64,000 bases of DNA, taken from contig NZ_UAPQ01000006.1 of NCBI RefSeq assembly GCF_900444995.1, forward strand, positions 1 to 64,000. Reading direction: 5' to 3'. The translations under genes were made by a program, and so were the position numbers. Shown in pieces: positions 3,847 through 35,056 of this stretch. Below the pieces are notes generated by a model. The model was not told the origin of the DNA. It searched no databases and worked only from the letters and a program-made list of their open reading frames with translations. The DNA comes from Actinomyces bovis (GTDB lineage Bacteria; Actinomycetota; Actinomycetes; Actinomycetales; Actinomycetaceae). Each line of letters opens with the position of its first letter. Position 1 is the stretch's first letter.

Positions 3847-3881
3847 CCTTCGAGTCTAGGCCGCAGGCCATACTGGCGCTC

Positions 3882-17212: not shown

Positions 17213-17698
17213 ATGTCTGAACGTCTTACTGCTGGCACCGCTGTCCAGTGGGCTGAGGGCAGCTGGACCGCTGTCGTCACCCCCAACGGTCTCATGCTCC
17301 TTCCCCCAGAGGTCTCTGACGAGCTTGTCAACCGGGTTTGGAGGCTCCTCCGTTCCGGTAGCGCCACCATGACCGATGTGCTCGACGAGCTGCTCGTGGC
17401 TCAGGGTGGCCGCATCGCCTCCATCCCGGACTTCGCTCTGCTGCTGCTGAGCGACAACGGCGATGTGCACCTGGCTCTGCGTGGCGTGCCGGCCCTTGAG
17501 GTCGACGGCGAGATCGTTGACGCTCGCGCCGTGTCCACCTGGTGCGAGACCGTGCTCCCCGCTCCCTCTTCAGTGCAGGTGCGCGTCCACGAGGCCCCCG
17601 GCGCCCGCATGCGCCCGGTGGTCGACGGTGTCGTCGCCGCCTCGGTTGTGCGCCTGGGCGACCAGCGCACCGCCGCTGTGGCCGTGGACGAGGTCTGA
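17213..17698 (+). CDS. Stand-alone copy of the N-terminal domain of the adjacent FHA protein
   Basis: Function not recognised. The 161-aa soluble protein aligns from end to end with residues 1-150 of the FHA protein encoded immediately downstream. Shared elements include AVQW, a GSW.AVVTP core, MLLPP, FA.LL, VRG.P, TW.ET and the conserved end RPVVDGVVA. There is no membrane segment or signal peptide, so it is probably cytoplasmic. ATG 17213 is chosen for AAGGAG 7 nt upstream; the longer frame starting at 17036 has no such site. It is separated from the larger copy by 195 nt, with its own leader. A partner or competitor role toward the FHA protein is inference. Confidence 0.85.
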   Translation: MSERLTAGTAVQWAEGSWTAVVTPNGLMLLPPEVSDELVNRVWRLLRSGSATMTDVLDELLVAQGGRIASIPDFALLLLSDNGDVHLALRGVPALEVDGEIVDARAVSTWCETVLPAPSSVQVRVHEAPGARMRPVVDGVVAASVVRLGDQRTAAVAVDEV

Positions 17699-17893
17699 GA
17701 GCAATACGTTAAAACCCGCAGGACCGGTCGGTCACGCGGAGGCTAGCCTGGGCAGAATCGCACAAGAAATCATGGCGATTACGAGCCCAATCCGACGCTA
17801 GTTCTCAATGTGTTGGCCGACTGGTTCTGCGGTAGTGTGGTCAGGATTCATTAGGACTGACCGGATGTTGTCCAGTTGTTGAAGGAGTACCGG

Positions 17894-20137
17894 ATGTCTA
17901 CAGGTCTGACCTCTGCTGGCGCCGTCCAGTGGGTCGGTGGTAGCTGGGTGGCTGTGGTCACCCCCCGTGGTGTGATGCTGCTGCCACCAACCGCAGACGA
18001 TGCCGTAGTCACCGACCTGTGGGAGCTGCTGCGGGCTGAGGGCACCTCAATGGTGGACCTGATGGACGCCCTGCTCAGCAGCTCAGGTGGTCACATTGGT
18101 TCCCTGCCCGAGTTTGCAGCCGTCTTGTCGGGCGAGGCTGAGGTCATGCACGTCATGGTGCGTGGCCGCCCGGTGATCTTTGTTGACGGCACGAAGCTGA
18201 ACTGCGACGGCGTCGAGACCTGGTACGAGACCACCCTTGAATCGGGCCAGGACATCCGGGTGATCGCTCCTGAGGAGCTGCACGGACGCACCCGCCCCGT
18301 CGTCGACGCGATCGTCTCCGCCGCTGCCCTGTTGCTGGGTGGTGGGAAGATCGACGACGGCATCATCCCCAAGGCACCAGAGCCAGTGGCGTTGGCCGCT
18401 GAGGCTAAGGAGTCTGCCGAGGCGGAACACGTCGAGGTGGCTGACAAGGCTGGCGCTGCGGAGCCGCTGGCGAAGGACGAGTTCCTTGACGCTCCGGTGC
18501 CCGCCCCGGCACTGGTGGAGGAGCACGTGCCGGTCGCTGATGAGACCATCATGGCGCCCCAGATCAGCCTCGACGAAGAACCTGAGGCCACCGAGGTGGC
18601 CGAGGAGACCAGCGCAGTCTCCGCTCACAGCGCTGCCGACGTTGAGCCCGTCGAGGCTGCCCTCTCCGGTGAGCAGATTGACGAGGTTGACGAGCTGAGC
18701 GCGCGGGCCGCTGATGCTGAGCAGAGCGCAGCTGAGGCCGAGGCTTCCGCCGAGTCCAGCCCCTCCGCCGAGTCCCCCAAGTCCGCTGCCTCTGCCGATG
18801 AGGCAGCGGTGTCCGCCCACTCCGCTGACGAAGCTGAGGACAAGGCGGAGGAGACTGACGAGGCTGACAAGCCTGAGGTGGCTTCCCCCGCCGACGCTCA
18901 GGCTCCTGCAGCGGACGAGCCGGAGGACCAGGTAGAAGCCCCCAAGGCTGATGCTGACGAGGCCGACCGGGCTGAAGACCTTGCTGCAGTTGAGACCCCT
19001 GAGGTTGACGCCGTTGTTGCAGAGGCAGTTGAGACTGACAAGCCCACCCGTGGCCGGGGTCGCTTTGGCAAGCGCGTGAAGGCTGCCGCCGCTGCAGCCG
19101 CCGCCCTCGTCGCGCATGAGTCCGCAGAGGCCGAGGCAGCAGAGGAGGCTGAGGACCTCGCCGAGTTTGCCGCGGGCAAGGATGAGGCGGAGGCTCCCGC
19201 CGCCAAAGCGGAAGAGACCCAGGCTGACGCCGAGCATGACGCTGAGGAGTCCGACGCCGTCGAGGCCGCTGAGCCCACGGAGGCAGAGGCATCTGCGGAG
19301 GCCGTCGAGGACGAGCCTGCCGCCGAGCTGGCCGAGGAGGCTGCTGCCTTCTCCAAGGACCAGACCCCCAACGCGCAGTTCCCCGACGAAGAGATCGAGT
19401 ACGAGTTCGAACTCGAACCCGGCATGAACGTCGTGGACGACTTTGATGAGGGTGAGGTGCGCGTCGTCACCCCCACCGCCCCGGCAGCCCAAGCTGAGGA
19501 ACCTCAGGACGAGGAATCCGAGGAGCCCCAGGCAGCTGACGAGGACAGCGAGGCCGTCTCCTCCACAATCATTTCCCACACGGTGGACCAGGACCTCCCG
19601 CAGGCCCTGCTCGCGGAGCTCGACGCCGAGTTCGGCGTTGACCTGGGTGCCCCCAGCACTGACGAGCTCTACGAAGACCGCTACGTGCTGGCTTGCCCCT
19701 GCCCCAAGGGCCACGCCAACCCCACAAGCCGCAGCAAGTGCCGCGTCTGTGGTGAGGACCTAGTCCTACCCGCACAGCGCATGGTCTGCCCCGCCCTGGG
19801 CACCGTCACCATGTCCTCCGGTGAGGTCATCTCCCTGGACCGTGACCTGGTGGTCGGCCGCCAGCCTGACGTGACCTCCTTCGCGATGGGCGACGTGCCG
19901 CCGCTCGCCGTCGTGGTGCCCAGCCCGGAGCGCCTCATCTCCCGCAACCACGTGCACATCATGCTCGAGGAGTGGGCGGTGCTGGTCGAGGACCTGGCCA
20001 CCCGCAACGGCACCATCCTGTGTCGCGACGGCGAAGACCCGGTGCGCATGGCTCCTGGCACCTCAGTGCTGATCCGCAACGGTGACGAGCTTGTGCTTGG
20101 CGACGGTCAATCCTTGGTCTTCGAGGATCTTCCGTGA
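17894..20137 (+). CDS. FHA-domain protein with duplicated N-terminal domain, acidic linker and zinc ribbon
   Basis: Four-part protein of 747 aa. Residues 1-150 are the same unnamed domain as the upstream gene. Residues from about 165 to 560 form an Ala/Glu/Asp-rich, strongly acidic, low-complexity linker, broken by one basic patch (RGRGRFGKRVKAAAA near residue 390). A zinc ribbon follows near residues 600-622 (CPCPKGH ... CRVCG). An FHA phosphothreonine-binding domain occupies about 650-745, with VVGRQPD, LISRNHVHI and TRNGT. ATG 17894 is chosen for the GAAGGAG upstream. The stop overlaps the kinase start (GTGA), so reader and kinase are translationally coupled. Location is cytoplasmic. It is likely a phospho-dependent scaffold for the kinase (inference). 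Confidence 0.88.
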   Translation: MSTGLTSAGAVQWVGGSWVAVVTPRGVMLLPPTADDAVVTDLWELLRAEGTSMVDLMDALLSSSGGHIGSLPEFAAVLSGEAEVMHVMVRGRPVIFVDGTKLNCDGVETWYETTLESGQDIRVIAPEELHGRTRPVVDAIVSAAALLLGGGKIDDGIIPKAPEPVALAAEAKESAEAEHVEVADKAGAAEPLAKDEFLDAPVPAPALVEEHVPVADETIMAPQISLDEEPEATEVAEETSAVSAHSAADVEPVEAALSGEQIDEVDELSARAADAEQSAAEAEASAESSPSAESPKSAASADEAAVSAHSADEAEDKAEETDEADKPEVASPADAQAPAADEPEDQVEAPKADADEADRAEDLAAVETPEVDAVVAEAVETDKPTRGRGRFGKRVKAAAAAAAALVAHESAEAEAAEEAEDLAEFAAGKDEAEAPAAKAEETQADAEHDAEESDAVEAAEPTEAEASAEAVEDEPAAELAEEAAAFSKDQTPNAQFPDEEIEYEFELEPGMNVVDDFDEGEVRVVTPTAPAAQAEEPQDEESEEPQAADEDSEAVSSTIISHTVDQDLPQALLAELDAEFGVDLGAPSTDELYEDRYVLACPCPKGHANPTSRSKCRVCGEDLVLPAQRMVCPALGTVTMSSGEVISLDRDLVVGRQPDVTSFAMGDVPPLAVVVPSPERLISRNHVHIMLEEWAVLVEDLATRNGTILCRDGEDPVRMAPGTSVLIRNGDELVLGDGQSLVFEDLP

Positions 20138-21696
20138 CCAAGCCTAAGGCAGAAGCCAGCGTTCCCCCGGGGATTGCTGGCTTCACCTACCTCCGGGAGA
20201 TCGGAACCGGAGGGTCTGCGCACGTATACTTATACGAGCAGCAGATGCCTAGGCGGCAGGTCGCCGTCAAAGTCCTAGATGCTGGCGGCAACAGCGGTGC
20301 AAAAGCCCGCATTGAGTCCGAGGCCAACCTTATGGCCCGCGTCTCCACCCACCCCGCGATTCTGACAATCAACGAGGTGGGGGAGACCTCCGATGGCCGC
20401 CCCTTCCTGGTGATGGAGTACTGCCCCCCACCAGCTCTTAGCGCCATCATCGAAAAGGATCCACTTAGCGTCGCTGAGGCCCTGAATATCACCATTCAGA
20501 TCGCTGGCGCCGTCGAGACCGCGCACCGCGCAGGCATCGTCCACCGCGACATCAAGCCCGCGAATATCCTCTTCACGAGCTATGGCCGCCCGGTGCTCTC
20601 AGACTTCGGCATCTCTGCGCTCTCAGACCCCGATGGCGACTCTGAGCTGCGCGGTATGAGCGTGCCCTGGGCGCCACCCGAGCAGCTGCTCGGCTCCCGT
20701 GTACCGGTGCCCGCCAGTGACATCTACTCTCTGGGTGCCACCGCCTACGCCATGCTCACCTGCCGCAGCCCCTACGAGGTGGTCGGTGGTGACAACGGCG
20801 TCTACGAGTTGTCACGACGCATCGTGAAGGCCCCACTGCCACAGATCGTGCGGGAAGACGTCCCGCCGTCGCTACAGCGCGTACTGGCAACGGCTATGGC
20901 CAAGAAGCCAGACAACCGTTACCCCAATGCCTTGGCCTTCGCGCGCGCCTTGCAGCAGGTGGAGAGCGAACTCAGCCTGCCGATCACCACGATCGACGTG
21001 CTACGCGCCTCCACTTCCGCTGAGGCCCAGGCGGCCAAGGAAGATGACACTGCGGATGACACCGACGGCGGCACCACCCGCTTTGGCGTCTACGACGTAA
21101 TCGACGTCGATTCCAACAGCAAACCACGTACAGACACTCACCGGGATGCCCCGGAGGATTCCACCCGCCACGAGGGCTACGAGATCGTAGAGCACGATTC
21201 ACCTGGCGATTTGCGTCTTCCTGGTCTCCGCCGCCTAGGCGTCATATTGGGAGTTTCTGCCGCAGTGGTGGCTTTGGGTGCCGGAGTGTTCTTGCTCAAC
21301 GAGCGGGGTGCCTCCAAGACAGGGCGCACCAACTCCAACCTGTCCACCATTGCCCCCGGACCGGGCGGTGCGGTGGGCAATAACGTGCCCTCACCGCGCT
21401 CGCTCAAAGGCAGCCTGGGAGCAGACGGACGGGTGACATTCACTTGGAGCCCACCAACTGACTCCTGGGAGGGCAGCTACCTTTACGGCGTTGATCGGCC
21501 CGGTGAGCAGCCTGGACTGCTGCAGGCTAACCAGACCCAGGCAGTGGTGGATGCTGAGCCTGTACGCACCTGCCTGGAGGTCCGGGCGGTCCAGCCCAAT
21601 GGCAAAGCCTCCCAGCCGGTTACGGCCTGCGTGGACACTGCGGCGCAGGGGACTGCCCCCAGTTCTGACAAGCAGCGAAACGGCAGTAGCTTCTAG
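20134..21696 (+). CDS. Transmembrane Ser/Thr protein kinase with extracellular fibronectin-like domain
   Basis: Eukaryotic-type kinase of 520 aa. Kinase core: glycine loop GTGGSAHV near residue 22, AVKV lysine, catalytic HRDIKPAN near residue 137, DFG near residue 157, PPEQ in the activation segment. No Thr is present between DFG and PPEQ (only Ser), unlike PknB-type kinases. An acidic juxtamembrane linker follows, then one helix near residues 365-389 (LGVILGVSAAVVALGAGVF), then an extracellular FN3-like domain (VTFTWSPPTDSWEGSY) with two Cys. No PASTA repeats. The start is GTG, overlapping the FHA gene by 4 nt. It converges on the RDD-FHA gene through a terminator hairpin. Its targets probably include the two FHA-linked proteins of the locus (inference). 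Confidence 0.93.
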   Translation: MTKPKAEASVPPGIAGFTYLREIGTGGSAHVYLYEQQMPRRQVAVKVLDAGGNSGAKARIESEANLMARVSTHPAILTINEVGETSDGRPFLVMEYCPPPALSAIIEKDPLSVAEALNITIQIAGAVETAHRAGIVHRDIKPANILFTSYGRPVLSDFGISALSDPDGDSELRGMSVPWAPPEQLLGSRVPVPASDIYSLGATAYAMLTCRSPYEVVGGDNGVYELSRRIVKAPLPQIVREDVPPSLQRVLATAMAKKPDNRYPNALAFARALQQVESELSLPITTIDVLRASTSAEAQAAKEDDTADDTDGGTTRFGVYDVIDVDSNSKPRTDTHRDAPEDSTRHEGYEIVEHDSPGDLRLPGLRRLGVILGVSAAVVALGAGVFLLNERGASKTGRTNSNLSTIAPGPGGAVGNNVPSPRSLKGSLGADGRVTFTWSPPTDSWEGSYLYGVDRPGEQPGLLQANQTQAVVDAEPVRTCLEVRAVQPNGKASQPVTACVDTAAQGTAPSSDKQRNGSSF

Positions 21697-21714
21697 AGAC
21701 ACTAACAACACGCG

Positions 21715-21760
21715 AAAGCGCCCGGTTCCTTGGCCTGAAGCCAATAAACCGGGCGCTTTT
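21715..21760. terminator. Bidirectional terminator between convergent arms of the kinase locus
   Basis: Perfect 13-bp inverted repeat: AAAGCGCCCGGTT (21715-21727) pairs with AACCGGGCGCTTT (21747-21759). A-rich on the left and TTTT on the right, so it can act on both strands. It sits 18 nt after the kinase stop and 30 nt before the RDD-FHA stop. Confidence 0.9.
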
Positions 21761-21789
21761 GTCGCAGTGGCTGCTTGCGGTAGCCGCTT

Positions 21790-24309
21790 TCAGCGCTGGA
21801 CGCGGTAGGCGGTCTGACCGAGCAACACCACGCCACCCTCGTGCACCATCACAGCGACGTCGGTAGGAATACGGCGAGCTTTGCCCGCACGCACCACCCG
21901 AGTGCCGTTGCTAGAGCCCAGGTCAGTAACCAAGATGCCGTGTTCGGTGGGCATCATGGCCGCGTGGGTCTTGGATACGGAAGGTGCAGAGTCGCCCAGG
22001 GCGACCAGCTTGGCCTCCGGGTAGCGGGAGGTGTTCAGCGGGGCCCGGCCAATAATCGTAGGTCCGGAAATGTGGATCGCCTTGCTTGCGTTGGTGAAGG
22101 GCATCAGGCGCATGACGGGTTCCGAGCGGTCGTCAACGAAGGCCGGGGCGGGGCCTTCGGTGCCAGCGGGGAAACCATCCTCTGTGGAATCCGTCGAGGT
22201 GGACTCCTCGGAGATGGCGTCGTCGTCATTGAGCAGGGCTTCCGCGAAGTAGCTGTCCAGCGACTCTCCTTCGGGCACCTCAATCATCGGCTCATCCGTG
22301 GTCTGACCATCCACCAGGTTGGCGTCAATCAAGGTGTCATCGACGACCTCTGAAGCCGAGGCCGGGCTCGTGGACTCCTTAGGCTGAGGCTCCGGGCTAA
22401 CCGGGTCTTCGGCATCAAAGGTGGCAATGCTCGGGCCGGAGGAGGCACTGGCGGCGGCCTTGGCGGCGCGAGCGGCTGCCCGGCGAGCGAAGACCTCCTG
22501 GACCAGTTCGTAGTGGTCATCGTGCTCCGACGGCGAAGGCGCCGATCGGGGAGCCCCGATCAGTTCCTTGACTGGCGGAACGACGCCGAAGGAAGAGGAT
22601 TCGTCGGCGTCCAACTCCTCCTGCGCACTCACAGCCACGAAACCGTTCTCAGCGGCAGCGTCACTCACAGTGTTGAAGGGCTTGAACTCGTTCAACTTGG
22701 CTGAGCCCTTGGAAACTGGGGGCACGACCGCCTGGGCCTGGGAGGCGGCATCGCTCTGCTCAGATGCGGCCTCGGCAGCCTCGGCTTCAGCCTCAGTGGG
22801 TTCGGTCGGCTCTGCTGTGGCCAGAATGCTCTGGGCCACCTGCTCGAACTCAGCCTCCGCGTCTGCGCGCCTTGGAACACTTGCGAGTTCGGGCTTTGGC
22901 GAGGACGAGTCCTCCTCCGCTGCTTCCTGGGCGGCATCAGCGTCGATAGCGGGTGTTTCGGGGCTGGGGGCACTCTCTGGCTCGTCGGCGGTGTGCTCAG
23001 CCCGCTCCGCGACTGGCTTCTTCGGGCTGGTGGCCGGAGCCTCAGGCGCAGATTTCACCTTGGCTGCAGTTTTGTGCTGCGGCTCCGGGGAGGAGACGTT
23101 TTCAGGCTCAGGCACCGGTGCGGTCTCAACCGCGTCCTGCGGCTCGGCAGCAGGCTCCAGTGCGGCCTTCGGCTCCTCCACTGGCTCTGGCGCCAGCTCG
23201 GCTGCAGCCTCCACCACAGGCGCAGGCTCAGAAACCGCCGCAGACTCGCCTACAGGTTCGGGGGCCGCTACTGGTTTTGGCGCAGTAACGGGCAAGACCT
23301 CAGTGGCATCATCTGCCTCTGCCTCAGGTGCCGCCTGCGTCATGGGCTCTGGGTCAACCTCCGGCTTCGCCTCGACCTCCGGCGCTACTGCCGCAACTGG
23401 CTCAAAGGCAGGAGCCGATACCGACTCCAGCCCCGGCTTGAGTTCAGCAGCCGTCTCCGGCTCGGTGACGGGCAGAATCTCGGTGGCAGCCTCAGCCTCC
23501 GGCGTCGTCTCAGGTGTCGGCTTCGCCTGGGCTGCAGGCGCCAGTTCCAGCTCAGGCGCCACTTCGGCTACCGGCTCCGGTCGGGGCGCCGTCGTCAACG
23601 ACTCCAGCACCGTCCCCGATGCGGCAGCAACAGAAGCAAAAACCGGTGCCTCGCTCTCGACCTTAGCCTGCTCTGCGCTGCTCACCTGAGCGCTGCGGCT
23701 CGACTCATACACCGAGCGGCTCACCGGCGTCTCACTTACGCCCACCTGCTCCAGGTCCTCCGCGTCAGCTCGGTAAAGCTCCTCCGGCACCTCCTCCAGA
23801 GTGCCCCTAGACAGCAGGGAGGTCTCGTCGAAGTCCTCCAGCTCGTCAGCTAGCGGGTCCTTGGTGCTCACGGCGATCAGACCAGAAATACGGTCATGCC
23901 AACCGCGCAGGTTCTTGTCCTTGGACGCAGAGCTCAAAAGCAGCAGGGAACCGAAACCAAGCGTAGGGACGATCGTAATAAGCACCAGGTCAGCGTGGAA
24001 GAACATGCCGATCCCGGGCCGGTTGTCAGTGCGGGCGTCAACCCAACGCACACCGGCGATGCGTCCACCCACGCTGTAGCCGGTGAGAGTCAGATCTGCT
24101 TCCCGGAGCAGCAAAATTACCGCCAGGATTGCGCCCAGCAGTGCCAGGTTGGGACGATCCATCACTAGAATTGACACGCCCATCAGTGCCACGGCCAGGA
24201 TGCTTATAAGGACGGCGTCGATGATGACAGCCCGGGCGCGCGCACCTGTGGTGGCAGGTATCCGCAAGGGGTTGACCATGGTCTCGTCTGTTACGCTCAA
24301 GAGCGTCAT
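21790..24309 (-). CDS. RDD-family membrane protein fused to an FHA domain
   Basis: 839-aa protein. Residues about 15-150 form an RDD membrane domain with several hydrophobic helices (LISILAVALMGVSILVM and following) and the typical YSVGGRIAGVRWVDARTG-like segment. Residues about 165-720 are a long Ala/Pro/Glu-rich acidic linker containing a repeated peptide, ATEILPVTEPE and ATEVLPVTAPK. The C-terminal FHA domain (about 730-839) shows IIGRAPL, SVSKTHAAM and LGSSNGTRVV. ATG 24309 is preceded by AGGAGAT and overlaps the stop of the transglutaminase-like gene as ATGA. It is the last gene of the leftward operon. It likely tethers phosphorylated partners to the membrane (inference). Confidence 0.9.
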   Translation of the reverse strand: MTLLSVTDETMVNPLRIPATTGARARAVIIDAVLISILAVALMGVSILVMDRPNLALLGAILAVILLLREADLTLTGYSVGGRIAGVRWVDARTDNRPGIGMFFHADLVLITIVPTLGFGSLLLLSSASKDKNLRGWHDRISGLIAVSTKDPLADELEDFDETSLLSRGTLEEVPEELYRADAEDLEQVGVSETPVSRSVYESSRSAQVSSAEQAKVESEAPVFASVAAASGTVLESLTTAPRPEPVAEVAPELELAPAAQAKPTPETTPEAEAATEILPVTEPETAAELKPGLESVSAPAFEPVAAVAPEVEAKPEVDPEPMTQAAPEAEADDATEVLPVTAPKPVAAPEPVGESAAVSEPAPVVEAAAELAPEPVEEPKAALEPAAEPQDAVETAPVPEPENVSSPEPQHKTAAKVKSAPEAPATSPKKPVAERAEHTADEPESAPSPETPAIDADAAQEAAEEDSSSPKPELASVPRRADAEAEFEQVAQSILATAEPTEPTEAEAEAAEAASEQSDAASQAQAVVPPVSKGSAKLNEFKPFNTVSDAAAENGFVAVSAQEELDADESSSFGVVPPVKELIGAPRSAPSPSEHDDHYELVQEVFARRAAARAAKAAASASSGPSIATFDAEDPVSPEPQPKESTSPASASEVVDDTLIDANLVDGQTTDEPMIEVPEGESLDSYFAEALLNDDDAISEESTSTDSTEDGFPAGTEGPAPAFVDDRSEPVMRLMPFTNASKAIHISGPTIIGRAPLNTSRYPEAKLVALGDSAPSVSKTHAAMMPTEHGILVTDLGSSNGTRVVRAGKARRIPTDVAVMVHEGGVVLLGQTAYRVQR

Positions 24310-26582: not shown

Positions 26583-27853
26583 GCGGGCACCATCGCTCGT
26601 ATCGCGCGCGGCAATTCCTGGAGCTCGTGCACATCCACCACCGGCAGCTGCCCAATATGGGAGCGGCTGAGGGATTTGGCGCCACACTGCACAGCAAAGG
26701 AGGTAATTGCTAGCGGCATAGTGCGGTGGGCCTTGCCCAGCACCGCGGCTTCAGTGGCTTGCCCGGTGACGATTGCCAGCACGGACAGGGCGGGGAAAGC
26801 ACGGATTGCTTGGCCTGCTAGGTCATCCAGACCGATCTCACTGGTGGCCTCTACCAGGCAGGAGGCGTCTAGCAGCCGCTGGGGGGTGGCCGTTGGCAGC
26901 GGGCCGTTTTGGGTCAGCACGTGAACCTCTCGGTTGGAGGCCAGGGCATCCAAAGCCAAGGAGCAGGCGGAGGAAACCGCAGTCTCAAAGTCATCTTCCG
27001 TGGCGTAGTCCTCTGAGCGGGTGGACAGCAGCACTACCAGACTGGCGCGACGCGTTTCTTCAAACTGACGCACCATGAGGCGGCCGGTGCGGGCGGTGGA
27101 GCGCCAGTGGACGTTGCGGCGGTCATCGCCGGGAATGTAGTCGCGCAGGGCGTGGAAGGAGACGTCAGAGGAGGACAGTTCTTGGGTGACGGCGCCCTCT
27201 ACGTCTCGCATGGTGCCGTTGAGTTGGATGCCCAGGTGGACTGTGCGCGGATAAATATGAACGCTCTGTGGCCGGGTGCGCAGTCGCTCGTGGCGCATCA
27301 AACCCAGGGGGTCCTGGTCAGCCGTGAGCACGGGGCCGACGTCGACGACGCCACGTCTCTTGGTGGGCAGGATGAAGCCGCGCTGATTGGTGGCCTCAGG
27401 TACCAGCGCTGGCACCACGAATACGGCCTGACCCTTGCCTACCCGCATCTCCATCCGGGTGGGCATAAGCAGCCGGTGGGTGGGGTTCTTGACTGTCACA
27501 TGGATGACTGCCCGGTCTCCCACCTGCATGCGAGGCTCCAGCAGCTCGTGCTCCACCTGGTGCCCTCCCTGTGGGATCAGCCAGACCAGGCAGGTCGCAA
27601 AGACGATGCCCGGGACCATGGCGAGCACTGCGGCTTCTCTCCAGCCCAGGAAGAACGTACCTATAAGCGCCAAGGCCAACAGCGCCAACACGGTCCAACC
27701 AGCCGGCATGATGACCTTGGCAACCTTCAGCACCTGCAACAGGAAGGCACGCAGACGCTCAGACCAGGTGGGCACGGCAACCGCCAGCGGCAGCGTGCTG
27801 CGCGTCGTGCTGGTGGTTGAGAGCGTGGTGTGCGGATTAGTGGAAGTCGTCAT
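26579..27853 (-). CDS. DUF58 protein (MoxR-associated, vWA-like)
   Basis: 424-aa protein. Two hydrophobic helices near residues 37-85 anchor it. A beta-rich extracytoplasmic or membrane-proximal region is followed by the DUF58 core, visible as RDYIPGDDRRNVHWRSTART near residue 240, then a Rossmann-type vWA-like region (RASLVVLLSTRSEDY). Genes of this family almost always accompany MoxR ATPases and are thought to be their partners in assembling or activating envelope or redox complexes. It lies 57 nt downstream of moxR and overlaps the transglutaminase-like gene by 4 nt. No metal-site analysis was attempted. Confidence 0.92.
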   Translation of the reverse strand: MTTSTNPHTTLSTTSTTRSTLPLAVAVPTWSERLRAFLLQVLKVAKVIMPAGWTVLALLALALIGTFFLGWREAAVLAMVPGIVFATCLVWLIPQGGHQVEHELLEPRMQVGDRAVIHVTVKNPTHRLLMPTRMEMRVGKGQAVFVVPALVPEATNQRGFILPTKRRGVVDVGPVLTADQDPLGLMRHERLRTRPQSVHIYPRTVHLGIQLNGTMRDVEGAVTQELSSSDVSFHALRDYIPGDDRRNVHWRSTARTGRLMVRQFEETRRASLVVLLSTRSEDYATEDDFETAVSSACSLALDALASNREVHVLTQNGPLPTATPQRLLDASCLVEATSEIGLDDLAGQAIRAFPALSVLAIVTGQATEAAVLGKAHRTMPLAITSFAVQCGAKSLSRSHIGQLPVVDVHELQELPRAIRAMVPA

Positions 27854-27910
27854 CTGGTTCCGTGTTGAACAGGTGGGTGGTAATCCTTGGCGGCGGTTAG
27901 GAGCTGTGGT

Positions 27911-28876
27911 TTAGGAGCGTGACGTTGGTGCGGCCACGGCGGCGAGCGCCTGGTTGACCACTTCCTGGGCGGTGGCACCACTGAATTCGGCGTCGGGGTC
28001 CATAACCAGGCGGTGCGCCCAAACCACCACAGCCAGGTCCTTGACGTCGTCGGGTAGCACGTAGGAGCGTCCCTGCGCAGCGGCCCAAACCTTGACGGCC
28101 CGAGTCATGGCGATTGCACCACGGGTGGAGACTCCCAGACGGGTGGACTCCGAGTCTCGGGTGGATTCAGCTAGGGCGCCGATGTAGTCCAGCACGGCGG
28201 TACCTACGTGGTTCTCCGCTGCCAGGTCACACATGGTGGTGACCTGCGCGCTGGAGACCACCGGGGAGAGGGTCTTAGAACGGTCCGGGGCGGCTGAACC
28301 CGCCAGGATTTCCGTTAGGGCGCTGCGCTCGGGGTAGCCGATGGAGGTTTTCATTAAGAAGCGGTCCAACTGGGCTTCGGGGAGCTTGTAAGTACCGGCC
28401 TGCTCCACCGGGTTCTGCGTAGCGATCACCATGAACGGCCGGCCCGCCTCATGGCGCACCCCATCGACGGTCACCTTGGACTCCTCCATGACCTCCAGCA
28501 GCGCTGACTGGGTCTTAGGCGAAGCCCGGTTAATCTCATCAGCCAACACAATGGAGGCAAACACCGGACCGGGGTGGAAGTCCCAAGAGCCGGTCTTTTG
28601 GTCATAAATGGTCACACCCGTGATGTCGGAGGGCAGCAGGTCGGGGGTGAACTGGATACGCGAATGGGTGCCTTGCACGGTGGCTGCTAAAGCGCGGGCC
28701 AGGGCGGTTTTACCGGTGCCGGGGGCGTCTTCCAACAGCAGGTGGCCTTCAGCCAGCATGGTGGTCAGCGCCAAGCGGATAATGTCCGTCTTGCCCAGCA
28801 ACGCCAAACCAACATTGTCAACAATACGGGAGAAGCTGGACGCGAATTCAGTCGCGTTCTCCTGGGTCATTGCCAT
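27911..28876 (-). CDS. MoxR-family AAA+ ATPase
   Basis: Chaperone-like AAA+ ATPase of 321 aa. Walker A LLLEDAPGTGKTALARA near residue 46, Walker B VLADEINRASPKTQSALLEV, sensor segment ATQNPVEQAGTYKLPEAQLD with the arginine of DRFLMK, and a C-terminal lid. MoxR proteins act with DUF58 partners on membrane-protein complexes. The ATG at 28876 has AAGGAGAA upstream at a long spacing; an in-frame ATG two codons later is possible. The 174-nt gap before it, after the giant protein gene, may carry an internal promoter, but none is clear. Confidence 0.94.
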   Translation of the reverse strand: MAMTQENATEFASSFSRIVDNVGLALLGKTDIIRLALTTMLAEGHLLLEDAPGTGKTALARALAATVQGTHSRIQFTPDLLPSDITGVTIYDQKTGSWDFHPGPVFASIVLADEINRASPKTQSALLEVMEESKVTVDGVRHEAGRPFMVIATQNPVEQAGTYKLPEAQLDRFLMKTSIGYPERSALTEILAGSAAPDRSKTLSPVVSSAQVTTMCDLAAENHVGTAVLDYIGALAESTRDSESTRLGVSTRGAIAMTRAVKVWAAAQGRSYVLPDDVKDLAVVVWAHRLVMDPDAEFSGATAQEVVNQALAAVAAPTSRS

Positions 28877-29050
28877 ATGGGGCGGTTCTCCTTGAATGGG
28901 TTATGCCTTGGTTCTCAAAGGAACCAGGACGCTTACAGGTCAGTCTTGGCGGGCGGTGGCCCAGAGGCCTTTCCGGCTGGAAGGTCTAGGCGGGTATGCC
29001 AGCGTGTGGGCTCCTGCGTGCAGGAGTGAGCGAAGGCCTCATGGTCATTC

Positions 29051-32000
29051 CTATGGCAGCCTGACGTAACTGCACGGCCGCCCGTAGGGCACCGAGCGGA
29101 TTGCACAGATACCGAAGGTTGGGTGCTGCCGGGTCAAGGTCCTTTGCAATGTTCCTGTGGGGGTGGAGGCGATTTGGACGCCAGTGTCGTAGTCGAGGAC
29201 TTCGTAGACGACGCCGTGGGTGTGAGGCCAGGTAACGTCCCATTTGCAAGTGGCGGTGTTGCCGTCCAGAGTGCACTTGGCCCAAGGGGTGTCGTTCTGC
29301 GGAGGCGGAGCCGCAATCTGGCCGATGCCGCAGGACTGGTTAGTACCCAGCTGGTTGGCGGTGCGTACGCAGACCTCTAAGCTGCCAGACTCTTTCAAGA
29401 ATTCCTTCTTGGTGCTGCCGGTGGCGTTGGAGCTGATGGCTTCTCCGTTGGCGGTCACGCTGTAAGTGGTGGGCAAGCCGGTATCCGTATCGGCGCTCCA
29501 GGTGCAGACGATGCTGCGATCCTGGGTGCTGCAGCTGACTTGTCCCTTGCGGGGCGTGGTAACCGGTATGGCGGGGGAGGACCAGCTGGAGGGCTGTGAC
29601 CGGGTGCCGTCAACTCCCACTGCGCGCGCCCGCAACACATAGCTTCTGCCGTTGGTCAGGCCAGTAAAGACCCCACCACCTGCGGGCACCGGCCAGGGGT
29701 TGCCCGTGGCACCAACCTGCGCCATCTCGTACTCGATGGAGAGCTCAGCTGCACTCCAACCCTTGCCAGAGACCGGGGTGGAGGCGGTTGCCAGCTGGAG
29801 CTGGCCGCTTACCTGATTCGAGTTGAGCGCCGGCACGGTGGGAGCCATCGGCACGGTGGAGTGGGCCACAGACCAAGGCTCGGAACTGACGGAACCGGCG
29901 GCGTTGGTGGCCGTCACCGTGAAGGTGTAGGTACCCCGGTCGGAGGCGTTAACGCGCAGGGAGGTACGGGAGCTGGTGTCGTAGGTGGCGGGGCCACCTG
30001 GCCCAGAGACGGCAACCGAGTAGGTGACCGGTGAGCCGTTGGGAGCTGCCGCAGCCCACTGGAGATCAATCTGATCATTGGAGTTGAAGGCCCCATAAGG
30101 GGTGCCCGGCTTACCGGGGGCGGAATAGGCGGTGGCGGAAGCCGACGACGCAGAAACTGCGGATTTCTGGCCGTTGGGATCGTTCGGGATCGCCATGACG
30201 GTGGCGTGGTAAGGCACACCAACCTTGATCTGATCGGAGGAGAAGGTGGCCGAGGTGGAGGCGGTCGGCACCGATACGGGGTTCGCTCCGGTCACCTCCG
30301 GGCTCAAGGTGACCTGGTAGGTCACGCCGCCGGGGATGGCGGGCACCGCCGTCCAGGACACCGTGAGGGTGCCATTGCCACCAACCAGACTGGGGGCAGC
30401 GGGCGTCTGCGGCCGCAAGGTTAGGTTTATCGCAGCGGAGGGCGCAGAGGGGGCCGAGTCGCCGGCTGCGCTGTGCGCCACCACTCGGAAGGAGTAGCTG
30501 CCGCCCGCACGCAGACCACTGGCCAAGCAGGGTGAACTGTTGCAGTTCCAGGAGCCAGCCCCACCGACCTCGGTGACCGTGTAACCGGTCACCGCGCTGC
30601 CGTTGTCACCGGCAGCAGCCCAAGACACCAGCGCGGAGGAACTCGAATTGGCCGAGGCCTGTACTCCTGTGGGGGCGGAGGGTACGCCAGTTACCGCCAC
30701 CACAATGGTGCCGGAGGCTGTGCGGTTGGGCTTCTGCGGGTCATCGGTAACTCGGAAAGACACCACGATGCGGCCGTGGAAGCCGGCGTCGGGGCTGATG
30801 GTCACAGAGTTGCCGGAGGCCGAGGCACTGCCCTGACCGGAGGTAACTGCCGGGGAACCTACCAAGGCGATCTGCGGGTTGGGCAGGGTGGTGGAGACCA
30901 AACTGCTGACATCCACGGACACCGGGCGGCCATTAGATTCCAGGGAAGTGGACAGGGCCGTGGGCAGGGGCTGGTTGTCTTCCTCCGTTACCGCCCGCAG
31001 TGGCAGTGAGCCCGTGACCGGATTGGACTTGCCGTCAGAGACAGTCACGGACAGGGTGCCCTGAGTGTCATTGGCAGTGCCCTGGGGGGAGGAGATCGTT
31101 ACCTGTGAGCCCGCCTGGGATACGGTGAAGCCGGTCGGGGCAGCACCAATGGTGTAGGTCATGGCGGCCAGGTCACCAGCGTCATTGTCGCGAGTCATGG
31201 CGGCCAGGTCAGCGCTTACAGATGGTCCGCCCGCAGTTACTGTCACTTGCGTGGGGGTGAAGACCGGTGGCGTGTTGGTGGAAGAGTCCACCACCACAGG
31301 GATCGTCAAGGTGGAGTGCAAAGGGTTGGCGGCGGCGCCGTCGGTAACCTCAAAGGTCACTGAGGTGGTGCCGGAGAAGCCAGCCTCCGGCACCAAATGC
31401 AGGGCCGTGTTGCCGTCCTGCGCGGTTGCGGAAGACAGGCCCGGGGTCACCCGGGGGCTGGTGCCTTCAACCAGGGTGGGGCTGGTGCCGGAACGGGTAA
31501 TCACATGCCCGGCCAGCTGTACATCACTGGGTTGGTCCTGGGTGATATGCACCGGCACGGTGGCTGGGTCGATGCGCGGTGGGGTGGAGGACTTGCCTGG
31601 CACCTGGATAACTGCATTGCCAGACAGGCCATCTTGGTCCGTGATCGTGTAGAGCACCAGATGCGGCTGGTCCTGCATGGTCACCCGCACATCAGTGCCT
31701 ACTACGGCGGCGGTCGGGTCATTAGTGGAGACGCTCAGAGCCCACGGACTGCCGTCGTCATCTCGGTCATTGTCCAGCACCGGGACCATGATGGTGCCAT
31801 TGGCTTCCGCCTTATCGACCTGGGCATAGTCGTCGACGCCGATGGGCGCGAGCAGCGGGGCGGCGTTAAGCGCCTGGAAAGTGACGGTGCCGGTGTCCGA
31901 GCCACCACGGGAGTCGGTGACGGTGTACCGCAGCGTGTGGACGCCTTCCTGATCCGGCAGGGTGACTACCACGCGCCCAGCCCGCACCCCTACCTTGAGG

Positions 32001-35000
32001 GCGGGGTCGTCACTGACGGGGTCTTCTGCCAGGGTCAGGGCGTCGCCGTCGCCGTCAATGTCATTGGAGATCACGTCCACGGCTATGGTGCGGCCCGGTT
32101 TGGCGGTGACGACGTCGTCAACGGCCACCGGAGCGGAGTTGGTGGTGGCGGCGGGAGCAATGCCCACGCGCACCGTGCCGGTGGCTTTGGCACCGTAGCG
32201 ATCCTCCACCGTGTAGGTGAAGGTGTCCGTGCCAGTGACGCTGGCGGCGGGCGTGTAGGTGATCCAGGTGGACTCCACTTGGGCGGCCCCCAGTTTGGGG
32301 GTCTGGTCTAGGCCCTTGAGGGTTACCGAGTCGCCGTCGGGATCGATGCCGTCTAGGGTCACCGGAATGCGGAGCTCTTGGCCAGCCACGGTCTGGGCCT
32401 CAATGGATTCCGCATGCGGGGGCGCGTTAGTTTCCGCTGTGGTGGCGCGCACTTCCAGGTTTACTGTGCCGGTGGCGCGCTGGCCGTGGTCGTCGGTGAC
32501 GGTGTAGGTCAGGGTGGTGGGGCCGGGGGTGGCACCAGCCTTAAAGCGCAGGGTCTTGTCACTGATCCAGGCGGTGCCCAGGGACTCCCCGACGGTGTTG
32601 ACCTCAGAGGCCAGTTTGATGGGCAGGCGGGAGGGCGAGTAGTCGTTCTTCAGCACCGGAATGGTGATGATGTCCCCGGCGCCAACAATTGCGGTATCGC
32701 CCTGGGCTACGGGTGGCTGCGTGTCGTCCTGGGCAGCGCGGACCACAGCCACAGTGCCGGTGGCGGTGGAGGTGCCGTTGGAAACGTTGTAAGTAATCGT
32801 CAGGTTGTCTGGCACCTGGTCCGTAGAGTTCACCTGCAGATAGGCGTGGTCCACGACCGTCGCGGTGATCCCAGGGGTGGCGGGCAGGGAAATATCCTGC
32901 AGCACTAGCACGCCTCCGGCTGGATCGAAGTCGTTGGCCAGGGGCGCCACGGTCACGGAGCCGCCATTGCGCAGCAGAGCGGTGTCGTTCTCCACCACCG
33001 GCGGCACGCTCGGGTCAGACTTCTCCACCACGTCAATGCGGATCACTGAGGTGGCTAGAGCAGCGCCACCGATAGCCCCATAGTCCAGGTAGTAGGTCTG
33101 AGGGACATCAGAGGAGAAGGTGAAGGTGCCGGCGCGGCGGTCCAAGTCGATCTTGGTGCCAGCTGGGGCTTCCTGCAGCTGCGCCAGCTTGAGCGGCTCA
33201 CCCGTGGGGGAGATGTCATTGGCCAGCGGGGAGACGGTGATGGTGGAGCCTGCCACCACGCGCACGTGGTCGGCATTGACAATGGGGCTGACCTGGTCGG
33301 TGGGGATTACCTCCACGAAAACCGTGCCCGCAGTGGTCTCGCGGCCGTCAGAAACCAGCAGTTCAATGCGGCGGGTGCCGGGGCCTGCGCCGGTGTCCCG
33401 CACGGTGATGGTGCCCTCCTGAGTGGTTTGCACCTCGACGTCGGTGCCGGAGGCTGAGGCTAGGAAGACGGGGTCACCGTCGGGGTCCTGCCAATCACCC
33501 AGCACATAAGCGGAAATCGTGCCCCCCTGCGCCATGGACAGGCTCTGCTGTTCCTTGCCGGGGGTGGGGGCACTGTTGACGTTCCAGTCGTGGACGGTCA
33601 CGGTGGCGACGGCGGAGTCTGCCTGCCCGCGCCCGTCTGAGGCCGTGTAGGGGATGGCCGTGGAACCGGTGGCGTTGGCTGGGACGTTGATCTGCAGGGT
33701 GCGGCCCGACTGGCCGGCGGTGACAGTGCCCAGGTTGCCGGTGTATCCGGAGGTGGCGGTGAGGATGTCACCGTCAGTGTCGACGTCGTTGGCCAGGACG
33801 TTTAGCACGGTGGAGCGTCCTGGGCGCACCCCGAAGTTGTCGTCGTAGGCCGTGGGGGCGTGGTTCTCCTGGGTGCGGTCCGGCTTGGTCTTCTTGGACT
33901 GGGTGGTTTTGGCGGATTTGTCTTGCCGGTCTGCGTTGTCATCTGCCTGGGCGGTGGCGTCCACCCACTTGTCCACTAGGACTAGGTTGTCCTCGGGCAG
34001 CCAGACATTGCCTTTGATGGTGTCGTTCAGGACGATTGCGTCCCGGTTGACGCGGAAGACCGGATTCTGGGCAGAGGCCAGATTGGAATCAGTTTTGACT
34101 TCCGGGGCTTCACCGGCGCACTGGCGGATGAACTGCCCGGAGGAGCTCCAGGCACCGTAGGTGCAGCCACGCAGGAGGACTGGCTGGGCGGCAACGCCTT
34201 GGGCGCCGGAGAGCTGGTCTTGGGGGACGACGTCGCTGGGTGCACCACCCTCCAAGGGGACGGTGAGCAGGCCGGTGCGGCTGGCTACTAGCACGGTAGA
34301 AGACGCTGGACCAGGCTGCTGCAGCACAAAGCCACCGCTACCTAGCTCGGTCTTGGCACCGCCGGGTAGGTGGAGCACGCCGGTGCCGGTTTCCAGCACT
34401 ACCGGCTGGTCACCGACGACGGTGATAGCCAGGTCCCCGCCCGCGGGCAGCTCCAACTGCTGGCGTTTGGGTTCTTTCCAACCCTGGCTGGCAACCGCCA
34501 CGGTGGCTAGTTCCCCGGAGCTGGAGACGGCGTAAACCGAACCATCCTGGCCGATCGTGGCCGCTACGTTGGGGAGTTTCTCCAGCAGTGGGCGCATAGA
34601 GGGCAGGGCGCCCAGCTCGCTGGTGCGTGTGCCGCGAACCGTGCCTTCCTCCGGGTCGTAGGCGATTACGCGGTTGCCGCCCTGGGCGACCTTGGCGGTG
34701 GGGGAGAGGTTGGTGGGGGAGGTGAACTCCACCAAGGCTGGGTCTACGGAGGCTACGGAGGCGGCGTCGGCATCGTGTACTAGGACTTCGGAGGCCACCT
34801 GGGTGACGTCAAAGTGTGAGGAGGCGGTGCGCACCGAGGAGTCGATCTGCCGGGAGGGGTAGTTGACTCGTCCCACCAGGTGCTGTGCGGCGGAGGTGAC
34901 CCAGACCCCGCCGTCGTTGAGTTCAAGATCGGTTTGGGAGACGCCTGGGTAAGCCCAGGCCGCTCCGGCAAAAGCCAGGGTGACTGCGGTGGCGGTCAGG

Positions 35001-35056
35001 GCTGAGACCCTACGACGCGCGCGGTTGCTGATACGCGCAAATGGGTTCGACGGCAC
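29051..35056 (-). CDS. Giant secreted Ig-like / fibronectin type III repeat protein
   Basis: 2001-aa exported protein heading the MoxR operon. The N-terminal basic/hydrophobic signal (ALTATAVTLAFAGAAWA) ends near residue 35. Residues about 36-380 are beta-rich and look propeller-like. A Lys/Asp/Gln-rich hydrophilic spacer follows. From about 397 to 1450 I count eleven cadherin/Ig-like modules of about 95 aa, many with an ND.D.DGD calcium-binding-type motif (VLANDVDTDGD, VISNDIDGDGD). From about 1455 to the end there are about six fibronectin-III-like modules, the last two rich in cysteine. There is no LPXTG motif or C-terminal anchor helix. The start is GTG 35056 with a G-rich ribosome site (GGGGGG). 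Probably a surface stalk or adhesin, likely mannosylated (inference). Confidence 0.9.
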   Translation of the reverse strand: MPSNPFARISNRARRRVSALTATAVTLAFAGAAWAYPGVSQTDLELNDGGVWVTSAAQHLVGRVNYPSRQIDSSVRTASSHFDVTQVASEVLVHDADAASVASVDPALVEFTSPTNLSPTAKVAQGGNRVIAYDPEEGTVRGTRTSELGALPSMRPLLEKLPNVAATIGQDGSVYAVSSSGELATVAVASQGWKEPKRQQLELPAGGDLAITVVGDQPVVLETGTGVLHLPGGAKTELGSGGFVLQQPGPASSTVLVASRTGLLTVPLEGGAPSDVVPQDQLSGAQGVAAQPVLLRGCTYGAWSSSGQFIRQCAGEAPEVKTDSNLASAQNPVFRVNRDAIVLNDTIKGNVWLPEDNLVLVDKWVDATAQADDNADRQDKSAKTTQSKKTKPDRTQENHAPTAYDDNFGVRPGRSTVLNVLANDVDTDGDILTATSGYTGNLGTVTAGQSGRTLQINVPANATGSTAIPYTASDGRGQADSAVATVTVHDWNVNSAPTPGKEQQSLSMAQGGTISAYVLGDWQDPDGDPVFLASASGTDVEVQTTQEGTITVRDTGAGPGTRRIELLVSDGRETTAGTVFVEVIPTDQVSPIVNADHVRVVAGSTITVSPLANDISPTGEPLKLAQLQEAPAGTKIDLDRRAGTFTFSSDVPQTYYLDYGAIGGAALATSVIRIDVVEKSDPSVPPVVENDTALLRNGGSVTVAPLANDFDPAGGVLVLQDISLPATPGITATVVDHAYLQVNSTDQVPDNLTITYNVSNGTSTATGTVAVVRAAQDDTQPPVAQGDTAIVGAGDIITIPVLKNDYSPSRLPIKLASEVNTVGESLGTAWISDKTLRFKAGATPGPTTLTYTVTDDHGQRATGTVNLEVRATTAETNAPPHAESIEAQTVAGQELRIPVTLDGIDPDGDSVTLKGLDQTPKLGAAQVESTWITYTPAASVTGTDTFTYTVEDRYGAKATGTVRVGIAPAATTNSAPVAVDDVVTAKPGRTIAVDVISNDIDGDGDALTLAEDPVSDDPALKVGVRAGRVVVTLPDQEGVHTLRYTVTDSRGGSDTGTVTFQALNAAPLLAPIGVDDYAQVDKAEANGTIMVPVLDNDRDDDGSPWALSVSTNDPTAAVVGTDVRVTMQDQPHLVLYTITDQDGLSGNAVIQVPGKSSTPPRIDPATVPVHITQDQPSDVQLAGHVITRSGTSPTLVEGTSPRVTPGLSSATAQDGNTALHLVPEAGFSGTTSVTFEVTDGAAANPLHSTLTIPVVVDSSTNTPPVFTPTQVTVTAGGPSVSADLAAMTRDNDAGDLAAMTYTIGAAPTGFTVSQAGSQVTISSPQGTANDTQGTLSVTVSDGKSNPVTGSLPLRAVTEEDNQPLPTALSTSLESNGRPVSVDVSSLVSTTLPNPQIALVGSPAVTSGQGSASASGNSVTISPDAGFHGRIVVSFRVTDDPQKPNRTASGTIVVAVTGVPSAPTGVQASANSSSSALVSWAAAGDNGSAVTGYTVTEVGGAGSWNCNSSPCLASGLRAGGSYSFRVVAHSAAGDSAPSAPSAAINLTLRPQTPAAPSLVGGNGTLTVSWTAVPAIPGGVTYQVTLSPEVTGANPVSVPTASTSATFSSDQIKVGVPYHATVMAIPNDPNGQKSAVSASSASATAYSAPGKPGTPYGAFNSNDQIDLQWAAAAPNGSPVTYSVAVSGPGGPATYDTSSRTSLRVNASDRGTYTFTVTATNAAGSVSSEPWSVAHSTVPMAPTVPALNSNQVSGQLQLATASTPVSGKGWSAAELSIEYEMAQVGATGNPWPVPAGGGVFTGLTNGRSYVLRARAVGVDGTRSQPSSWSSPAIPVTTPRKGQVSCSTQDRSIVCTWSADTDTGLPTTYSVTANGEAISSNATGSTKKEFLKESGSLEVCVRTANQLGTNQSCGIGQIAAPPPQNDTPWAKCTLDGNTATCKWDVTWPHTHGVVYEVLDYDTGVQIASTPTGTLQRTLTRQHPTFGICAIRSVPYGRPCSYVRLP

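What the first reader, a model, noticed from the sequence alone, without database searches (positions are those of the whole stretch)
17213..35056. Kinase / FHA / MoxR / giant Ig-FN3 locus inserted into a conserved backbone
Two arms converge on one bidirectional terminator. Together they hold a transmembrane kinase, two phosphothreonine-reading FHA proteins, a MoxR-DUF58-transglutaminase-like trio and a 2001-aa secreted repeat protein. Translational overlaps link each arm (GTGA; ATGA twice). The set reads as one system in which phosphorylation controls assembly or display of the giant surface protein. Related clusters occur in other actinobacteria to my knowledge, but their biochemistry is not established. 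No PP2C phosphatase is seen in the window.
Basis: partly seen in the sequence, partly recalled or inferred. Interest (0 to 1): 0.8.

Follow-up and report, generated by a model that had tools for sequence, protein, structure and literature searches.

The report
Kinase-controlled surface-protein cluster, secretion-linked paralog
This Actinomyces gene cluster joins a membrane kinase, proteins that read phosphorylated threonine, an ATPase machine and a 2001-residue surface protein; it is a real, conserved unit and the sister of a second cluster that is joined to a type VII-like secretion system, with which it keeps exchanging its ATPase core.

Summary
The locus is real: eight genes at 17213-35056 in two convergent arms over one strong hairpin. 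Of 49 genomes, the DUF58 subgroup (left arm) and the kinase (right arm) occur in the same 41 and are both undetected in the same 8; in 38 of the 41 they are convergent neighbours, in 3 on different contigs. In outline the kind is known: the Bifidobacterium "PFNA" operon lists the same five core genes.

Three things appear new. (1) The genome has a paralogous cluster beside rpoBC that adds a PP2C and runs into EssC/WXG100 type VII-like genes. EssC adjoins 10 of 13 non-window-type relatives tested; the window form has neither. (2) The "transglutaminase" lacks its catalytic cysteine in 36 of 36 readable relatives: probably a pseudo-enzyme. (3) The MoxR ATPase core is homogenised between the clusters by recurrent gene conversion (296 identical bp here, 441 in a relative), while the rest mostly stays cluster-specific.

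Most likely it is an EssC-free, kinase-controlled apparatus for assembling the giant surface protein. The mechanism is inferred; no biochemistry was possible.

The parts
17213..17698 (+). 161-aa solo copy of the N-terminal domain of the FHA1 protein; its leader (AAGGAGTA...GGATGTCT) resembles that of FHA1
   Evidence: alignment (41% identity to the FHA1 N-domain); no Pfam or NCBIfam match; also present in relatives G043 and G047; leader
17894..20137 (+). FHA1: N-terminal domain of unknown fold, long acidic linker, CPC..CRVC zinc-ribbon-like stretch, C-terminal FHA (747 aa)
   Evidence: (FHA 2e-5)
20134..21696 (+). Transmembrane Ser/Thr kinase with an FN3-like extracytoplasmic domain (my reading) holding two conserved Cys (520 aa)
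   Evidence: (Pkinase 2e-37); active-site residues and C480/C499 invariant in 14 of 14 aligned
21715..21759 (.). Terminator-like hairpin between the convergent arms
   Evidence: -31 kcal/mol, z -6.45
21790..24309 (-). RDD membrane domain + long linker + C-terminal FHA (839 aa)
   Evidence: RDD 2e-6, FHA 3e-5
24306..26582 (-). TgpA-like membrane protein with a transglutaminase-fold domain lacking the catalytic Cys and His (758 aa from the internal ATG)
   Evidence: (Transglut_core 7.8e-18)
26579..27853 (-). DUF58 protein (424 aa)
   Evidence: (7e-12)
27911..28876 (-). MoxR AAA+ ATPase (321 aa); ATPase core homogenised with the paralog on C2
   Evidence: (AAA_3 2e-61)
29051..35056 (-). Giant surface protein (2001 aa): N-terminal hydrophobic stretch (below the cut-off in this copy), conserved ~400-residue N-terminal domain, Big_9 repeats, FN3, no C-terminal membrane segment
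35215..35940 (-). Flank: TetR regulator (FasR model 115.8 bits, below its cut-off 330); a match lies beside the cluster in L024, L033, G007, G015, G043
14123..17010 (+). Flank: ispE-like GHMP kinase and ABC-F ATPase; ABC-F recurs beside the cluster in L023, L024, L025, L029, L033 and in G003, G007, G014, G015, G043, G047, G048

Best explanation
The locus encodes one envelope machine: an EssC-free relative (type B) of a kinase-controlled module whose sister (type A) is built into a type VII-like secretion locus. SHOWN by sequence: a conserved unit of kinase, FHA1, RDD-FHA, pseudo-transglutaminase, DUF58, MoxR and giant protein; a type A paralog with PP2C and EssC/WXG100 genes in the same genome; loss of the transglutaminase nucleophile; gene conversion of the MoxR ATPase core. 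INFERRED mechanism: the giant Ig/FN3 protein is exported and held by its N-terminal segment, reaching out through the wall. The MoxR-DUF58-pseudo-transglutaminase trio acts at the membrane as an ATP-driven assembly or remodelling device, with the transglutaminase fold serving as a binding scaffold rather than an enzyme. The kinase reads the state of the giant protein through its FN3-like outer domain and phosphorylates threonines (MoxR being the precedent in Bifidobacterium), which FHA1 and RDD-FHA bind to switch or recruit the device. Dephosphorylation comes in trans, from the PP2C of the type A cluster or a second PP2C elsewhere. MoxR is the shared, exchangeable part of both machines.
For: Co-occurrence 41 of 41 and co-absence 8 of 8 in 49 genomes. 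Paralog with PP2C, EssC and WXG100 (EssC model TIGR03928 554.6 bits, under its 778.4 cut-off; WXG100 model TIGR03930 51.5 bits, over its cut-off). Type B is one clade, bootstrap 100. Nucleophile Cys absent in 36 of 36 readable open frames of relatives and in both copies of this genome, aligned to the Cys of solved 6g49. MoxR conversion: A-B third positions in the core 138/150 identical here, against 84-93/150 for the same cluster type between this genome and three others. In G018 the type B locus has no MoxR while its type A has one, as a shared MoxR would allow. Pkb2 phosphorylates MoxR in B. longum (PMC8430577).
Against: No biochemistry or phenotype for this locus came up. MoxR is absent from the type B locus in 3 of 19 distinct genomes read there (G007, G015, G018), and G007 and G015 show no type A cluster either, so MoxR is not strictly needed in cis. 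Three named non-B clusters (L040, L043, L045) have no EssC beside them; in the genus G040's type A has none next to it although the contig goes on, G021's contig ends there, and a third form in G032, G033 and G004 lacks it. So the T7SS link is frequent but not universal. The root of the tree, hence the direction A to B, is not fixed. Gene conversion may reflect mere sequence similarity rather than shared function.
Confidence: 0.5

Rival explanations
1. Plain Bifidobacterium-PFNA equivalent: a host-sensing adhesion operon in which the giant FN3 protein binds host ligands and the kinase reports binding; the type VII link in the paralog is incidental.
For: Same five core genes, and reported TNF-alpha binding and presumed adhesion role of the bifidobacterial FN3 protein (PMC8430577 sections 3 and 4 read; PMC10688814 passages).
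Against: Related clusters also occur in Brachybacterium, Psychromicrobium and Smaragdicoccus, genera with environmental members (recalled), and EssC sits beside 10 of the 13 handed. The paper's statement that FN3 is unique to bifidobacteria would not hold if these giants are its homologs; direct homology was not tested.
Confidence: 0.25
2. The giant protein is a structural part (conduit or sheath) of a type VII-like secretion apparatus, equivalent to TsdI of T7SSd; the window cluster then serves in trans one of the EssC-like ATPases elsewhere in the genome.
For: T7SSd has a 1654-aa Ig-like TsdI and a kinase (PMC11217815 section 'T7SSd and T7SSe' read); the window genome holds three EssC-like matches (C2, C8, C12); type A couples giant and EssC in one run of genes.
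Against: TsdI has a C-terminal membrane helix; none of the 22 giants examined has a hydrophobic segment at the C-terminus. Homology to TsdI was not tested. In one search only 7 of the 41 cluster-bearing genomes have an EssC of the type A subfamily.
Confidence: 0.15
3. The gene set is a phospho-regulated cell-wall maintenance complex (MoxR/DUF58 as in the mycobacterial moxR1-rip neighbourhood) and the giant is a wall-spanning scaffold rather than a displayed adhesin.
For: In mycobacteria moxR1 lies next to a DUF58 gene in an operon discussed with rip wall hydrolases, and the authors note likeness to PFNA (PMC12067865 passages); a transglycosylase/G5 protein and a ksgA-like gene lie near here.
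Against: No hydrolase was seen in the conserved unit; the cluster's markers are undetected in 8 of 49 same-genus genomes, so it looks dispensable.
Confidence: 0.1

Closest known systems
Bifidobacterium PFNA operon (pkb2, fn3, aaa-atp, duf58, tgm, with prpC and fha in some species)
   Same: Kinase with TM and outer C-terminal region, FN3 protein, MoxR, DUF58, transglutaminase-like; same order fn3-MoxR-DUF58-transglutaminase
   Different: PFNA genes run in one direction, kinase first, with PP2C in some species; here two convergent arms, two FHA proteins, no PP2C, a giant with nine Big_9 stretches, and a paralog tied to EssC. Sequence, length and catalytic Cys of the bifidobacterial proteins were not examined.
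T7SSd (Garrett, Higginson and Palmer 2024, PMC11217815)
   Same: Actinobacterial EssC with N-terminal FHA, WXG100, transmembrane kinase, giant Ig-like protein: present in the C2 paralog
   Different: The window cluster itself has no EssC or WXG100; the paper's main text has 0 hits for MoxR, DUF58, transglutaminase, fibronectin; the giants lack the C-terminal TM described for TsdI
MoxR-DUF58-TgpA gene triads (transglutaminase structure PDB 6g49; named Pseudomonas TgpA from recall)
   Same: Gene order (reported as frequent in PMC6803598 passages) and transglutaminase fold (E 7e-10 to 6g49)
   Different: Catalytic Cys replaced by Asp, Glu or Ala; His also lost in readable window-type members

Membership tests
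PFNA-type cluster | Ser/Thr kinase with transmembrane and outer C-terminal region | tested here: met
   the membrane segment is read from the sequence
PFNA-type cluster | Large secreted FN3-domain protein | tested here: met
   fn3 2.6e-24 in the 2001-aa protein; secretion itself not testable
PFNA-type cluster | MoxR, DUF58, transglutaminase genes in this order after fn3 | tested here: met
PFNA-type cluster | All genes in one direction, kinase first | tested here: not met
   Two convergent arms; hence filed as a variant, not a member of the operon as defined
PFNA-type cluster | Co-transcription | not testable with these tools
   Only overlaps and a hairpin seen
PFNA-type cluster | Direct sequence homology to the bifidobacterial proteins | not tested
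   No Bifidobacterium sequence was in hand; order-level searches gave no answer
T7SSd | EssC ATPase (TsdC) with FHA | tested here: not met
   Window: no EssC on C9 at E 1e-60, no match among window ORFs. The C2 paralog has one
T7SSd | WXG100 protein (TsdA) | tested here: not met
   Window: no phmmer match to the C2 WXG100 at E 10 (a single-sequence search). The C2 paralog has one
T7SSd | Giant TsdI with signal and C-terminal TM helix | tested here: not met
   22 giants, none with a C-terminal hydrophobic segment
T7SSd | TsdH, small single-TM protein | not tested
   -
Active transglutaminase / cysteine peptidase | Catalytic Cys-His-Asp | tested here: not met
   Cys replaced by Ala and His by Thr in the window (against 6g49); Cys absent in 36 of 36 readable open frames of relatives

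The most novel reading that the evidence does not exclude
Actinobacteria carry a family of phospho-switched envelope machines built from a giant Ig/FN3 protein, MoxR, DUF58 and a dead transglutaminase scaffold. The machine is ancestrally an accessory of a type VII-like secretion system and has been released in Actinomyces as a free-standing surface apparatus. The two machines in one cell share an ATPase that gene conversion keeps identical, so MoxR hexamers may be mixed and couple surface assembly to secretion.
Probability: 0.3. Interest if true: 0.8.

Novelty: new variant of a known kind. Interest (0 to 1): 0.6.

Why it matters
It connects two subjects that no paper listed in the searches made was seen to treat together: the probiotic 'PFNA' operon and the newly described actinobacterial type VII systems. 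It predicts that the bifidobacterial 'transglutaminase' may be a non-enzymatic scaffold, and that giant FN3 proteins are parts or products of a conserved machine rather than only host-specific cytokine receptors. The repeated homogenisation of one AAA+ core between two operons is an unusual natural test of which part of a MoxR machine is generic and which part is partner-specific.

Tried and rejected
Of the seven kinase hits not near a DUF58 hit, G030, G040 and one of the two in G005 are the partners of a DUF58 on another contig (in G040 the DUF58 begins at base 298, in G030 the kinase at base 3877 of its contig). The other four are extra kinase hits (an interrupted frame in G019 and in G020; a short one in G005 and in G042).

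Independent origin of the two clusters: rejected, because the shared genes are homologous (kinase 44%, TgpA 35%, giant 34%, MoxR 85%, C-terminal parts of FHA1 39% and RDD-FHA 28%; DUF58 43%).

High MoxR identity as mere purifying selection: rejected, because third codon positions are nearly identical within genomes but not between them. The signal is weaker in G045 (90.7%, nearest core in another species). G033 is homogenised over the whole gene, and in G004 the tail nearest neighbour is also in the same genome. In G040 the B copy is marginally nearer G045_B. G021 is cut short, and G018's type B locus has no MoxR.

Kinase outer domain as a relative of the giant's FN3 domains: only weak matches (whole-protein E 6e-4 to 5e-3 in 3 of 22 giants), not used.

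Structure prediction of the FHA1 N-domain (A10) and the giant N-domain (A8): the machine was busy at every try, so the folds are unknown. Order-level co-occurrence: the tool gave no answer, so breadth outside the genus rests on the 28 loci, a scan for two DUF58 peptides and so biased to close relatives. My regular expressions for kinase and MoxR motifs were badly written (20 of 36 and 0 of 38) and are not used; kinase conservation rests.

Rows left out of counts. Of 28 loci, 10 are window-type, 2 are deltaproteobacterial with weak matches (L048, L049), L032 and L047 are cut short, L041 is from the same MAG as L040; the other 13 went. L054 is the same genome as L027 (contig length), and G004 is the genome of L026/L044. 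One search used 53 of the 55 DUF58 rows (a second fragment in G028 and in G034 left out) and 38 of the EssC rows (matches to the FtsK core alone left out; none lay within 30 kb of a DUF58 hit). The 36 frames include two repeats (L041, L054); three gene fragments were unreadable. My notebook entry calling G040's type A 'contig edge' was wrong; one search corrects it.
Full report
What is there. The window belongs to a 2.6-Mb genome (G000, contig C9). It lies in the same genus as the genome behind locus L044, Actinomyces dentalis: the 'same genus' genome G004 and the genome of L044 give the same EssC match at the same contig position. At 17213-35056 eight genes form two arms that converge on a hairpin of -31 kcal/mol (z -6.45). 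Right-going: a 161-aa protein, an FHA protein (FHA1) and a transmembrane kinase. Left-going: giant Ig/FN3 protein, MoxR, DUF58, a TgpA-like protein and RDD-FHA. The three translational overlaps are as described. On one side lie ispE- and ABC-F-like genes, on the other TetR and GDPD. Where fetched stretches reach, ABC-F recurs beside the cluster in L023, L024, L025, L029, L033 and G003, G007, G014, G015, G043, G047, G048. TetR recurs in L024, L033, G007, G015 and G043 (not detected in G047), and GDPD in G043 and G047. The site is thus old within the genus.

One correction. The gene at 17213 is no FHA protein. It is a solo copy of the N-terminal domain of FHA1, with a similar ribosome-binding leader. 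G043 and G047, whose EssC is the most similar (96 and 92%), have it too. Of 19 distinct type B loci read there, 14 have instead a second small RDD-FHA gene upstream of FHA1 (in G018 cut by the stretch end), and G007 and G015 show neither. The N-domain has no Pfam or NCBIfam match; its fold could not be predicted.

One unit. In the 49 held genomes of the genus searched, the DUF58 subgroup (profile A6, E 1e-20) is found in 41 and the kinase (profile A7, E 1e-70) in the same 41; both are undetected in the same 8. In 38 of the 41 a DUF58 hit has a kinase hit 4.6-8.8 kb downstream on the opposite strand, as in the window; in the other 3 the two are on different contigs.

The paralog. Searching the own genome for PP2C, MoxR and FHA led to a second cluster on contig C2, directly after rpoB-rpoC. 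In order it holds a giant (up to 2069 aa), MoxR, DUF58, TgpA, RDD-FHA, PP2C, FHA1, kinase, a 262-aa conserved protein, an FHA-bearing EssC-like ATPase (1491 aa) and proteins with WXG-like and LXG-like N-termini (my reading; no family match). Further on lies a WXG100 protein over its curated cut-off. All named genes run in one direction. I call this type A and the window form type B. Among 28 loci fetched by a named-genome scan, 10 are type B, all Actinomyces. Of the 13 other actinobacterial loci handed to, 10 have an EssC of the same subfamily right beside the cluster: Psychromicrobium, Smaragdicoccus, five Brachybacterium, Schaalia canis (with an in-frame stop), a Renibacterium MAG and A. dentalis. 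Three do not (L040, L043, L045). PP2C is present in 11 of these 13 (not in L031 and L045) and was found in 0 of 19 distinct type B loci. In the genus, 9 of 49 genomes have a type A cluster, each in a genome that also has type B markers. EssC adjoins it in 7; in G021 the contig ends there; in G040 the contig goes on without EssC. A third, smaller form (MoxR-DUF58-TgpA-kinase, co-directional, no EssC) occurs in G032, G033 and G004. A tree of DUF58+TgpA+kinase puts type B in one clade (bootstrap 100). The root is not fixed, so 'B derived from A' is the likelier but not the proven direction.

A dead transglutaminase. Aligned to the solved protein 6g49, the nucleophile Cys falls on Asp, Glu or Ala: 0 Cys in 36 readable open frames of relatives (29 Asp, 5 Glu, 2 Ala; two frames are repeats, three fragments unreadable), and Ala and Asp in the window's genome. 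The His is kept in every readable non-B frame except Smaragdicoccus and the five Brachybacterium, and in no readable type B frame. The two are the only matches to this domain in the genome. The PFNA papers call the corresponding gene a transglutaminase or presumed cysteine protease (PMC8430577 section 3; PMC6803598 passages). Whether bifidobacterial Tgm keeps its Cys was not tested.

MoxR conversion. The two MoxR proteins of the window genome are 85% identical while kinase, TgpA, DUF58 and giant are 34-44% identical. At DNA level a run of 296 bp is identical, and 138 of 150 third positions in the ATPase core agree, against 67 of 141 in the tail. In seven genomes with both types and enough sequence, core identity within the genome is 96.9, 99.3, 99.8, 90.7, 98.9, 96.0 and 95.8% (G000, G043, G047, G045, G033, G040, G004). 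In six of the seven the closest core of at least one copy is the other cluster of the same genome. In G004_B that is tied to the nearest percent with a cut-off sequence; in G040 it holds for the A copy only. Tails are closest to the same cluster type in another species in 10 of 14 sequences; the exceptions are both copies of G033 and of G004. DNA comparison of whole clusters in three genomes (G000, G047, A. dentalis) shows no other long stretch so similar; next in G000 is a 267-bp DUF58 block at 80%. This reads as recurrent intragenomic gene conversion, mainly of the MoxR core. Against a strict need for MoxR in cis, three type B loci have none: G007 and G015, where giant and DUF58 abut, and G018, whose type A cluster keeps one.

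How it most likely works. Shown: gene content, co-inheritance, invariant kinase residues in the 14 aligned kinases, FHA motifs in 30 of 31 and 38 of 39 frames, hydrophobic segments near the N-terminus in most giants and none at the C-terminus (22 examined; in the window giant the N-terminal one is below the cut-off used). Inferred: the kinase reads the envelope with its FN3-like outer domain, threonine phosphorylation recruits FHA1 and RDD-FHA, and the MoxR-DUF58-pseudo-transglutaminase device assembles or remodels the giant protein. The precedent is the reported phosphorylation of MoxR by Pkb2 in B. longum. Phosphatase would act in trans.

Literature. The kind is known as PFNA in bifidobacteria (PMC8430577 abstract and sections 3 and 4; PMC10688814 and PMC6803598 passages). 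T7SSd is described in PMC11217815 (abstract, the sections on identification and on T7SSd/e, and passages). Its main text has no hit for MoxR, DUF58, transglutaminase or fibronectin, and one search counted no 'Actinomyces' in it. Searches for both subjects together showed no paper that joins them, judged from listings; one search listed 20 of 57 and one search listed 25 of 29. One search on gene conversion and MoxR listed 10 of 890 papers and cannot show absence. The library is open-access only, and supplementary files were not read. The mycobacterial moxR1 comparison is from PMC12067865 passages. Passages of PMC5720513 (a T7SS in Actinotignum schaalii) and PMC7159879 (MoxR-vWA conflict systems) were also seen and describe other arrangements.

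Verdict. A genuine, conserved system; a new variant of the PFNA kind, with a type VII link, a probable pseudo-enzyme and a gene-conversion pattern. The mechanism is plausible but untested.

Noticed in passing
L078 (G015), L079 (G007) and L084 (G018), giant/DUF58 junction: Three type B loci lack MoxR; in the first two the giant and DUF58 genes abut within about 15 bp. G018 still has MoxR in its type A cluster.
   Followed up: partly
L050, L051, L052 (G033, G004, G032): A third, minimal form of the cluster (MoxR-DUF58-TgpA-kinase co-directional, no EssC) in genomes that also carry type B.
   Followed up: partly
L082 (G040 C25 44000-62000): Type A cluster that ends after the 262-aa-type protein without an EssC beside it.
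   Followed up: partly
G000 C8 about 131-139 kb (L018): Another MoxR-DUF58-two-vWA locus with an FHA protein upstream in the same genome.
   Followed up: no
G000 C9 about 273-280 kb (L019): DUF4129-DUF4350-MoxR-DUF58-RDD locus, a further MoxR context in the same genome.
   Followed up: no
G000 C8:184053-187913 and C12:177030-180032: Two further EssC-like ATPases besides the one in the C2 cluster.
   Followed up: no
window 40439-43345: 968-aa protein with a LuxR-type (GerE) C-terminal domain, next to a prsA-like gene.
   Followed up: no
G000 C5 about 35-38 kb (L005): Three FHA domains and the second PP2C lie together, as in the usual actinobacterial pstP/pknB region (name recalled).
   Followed up: no
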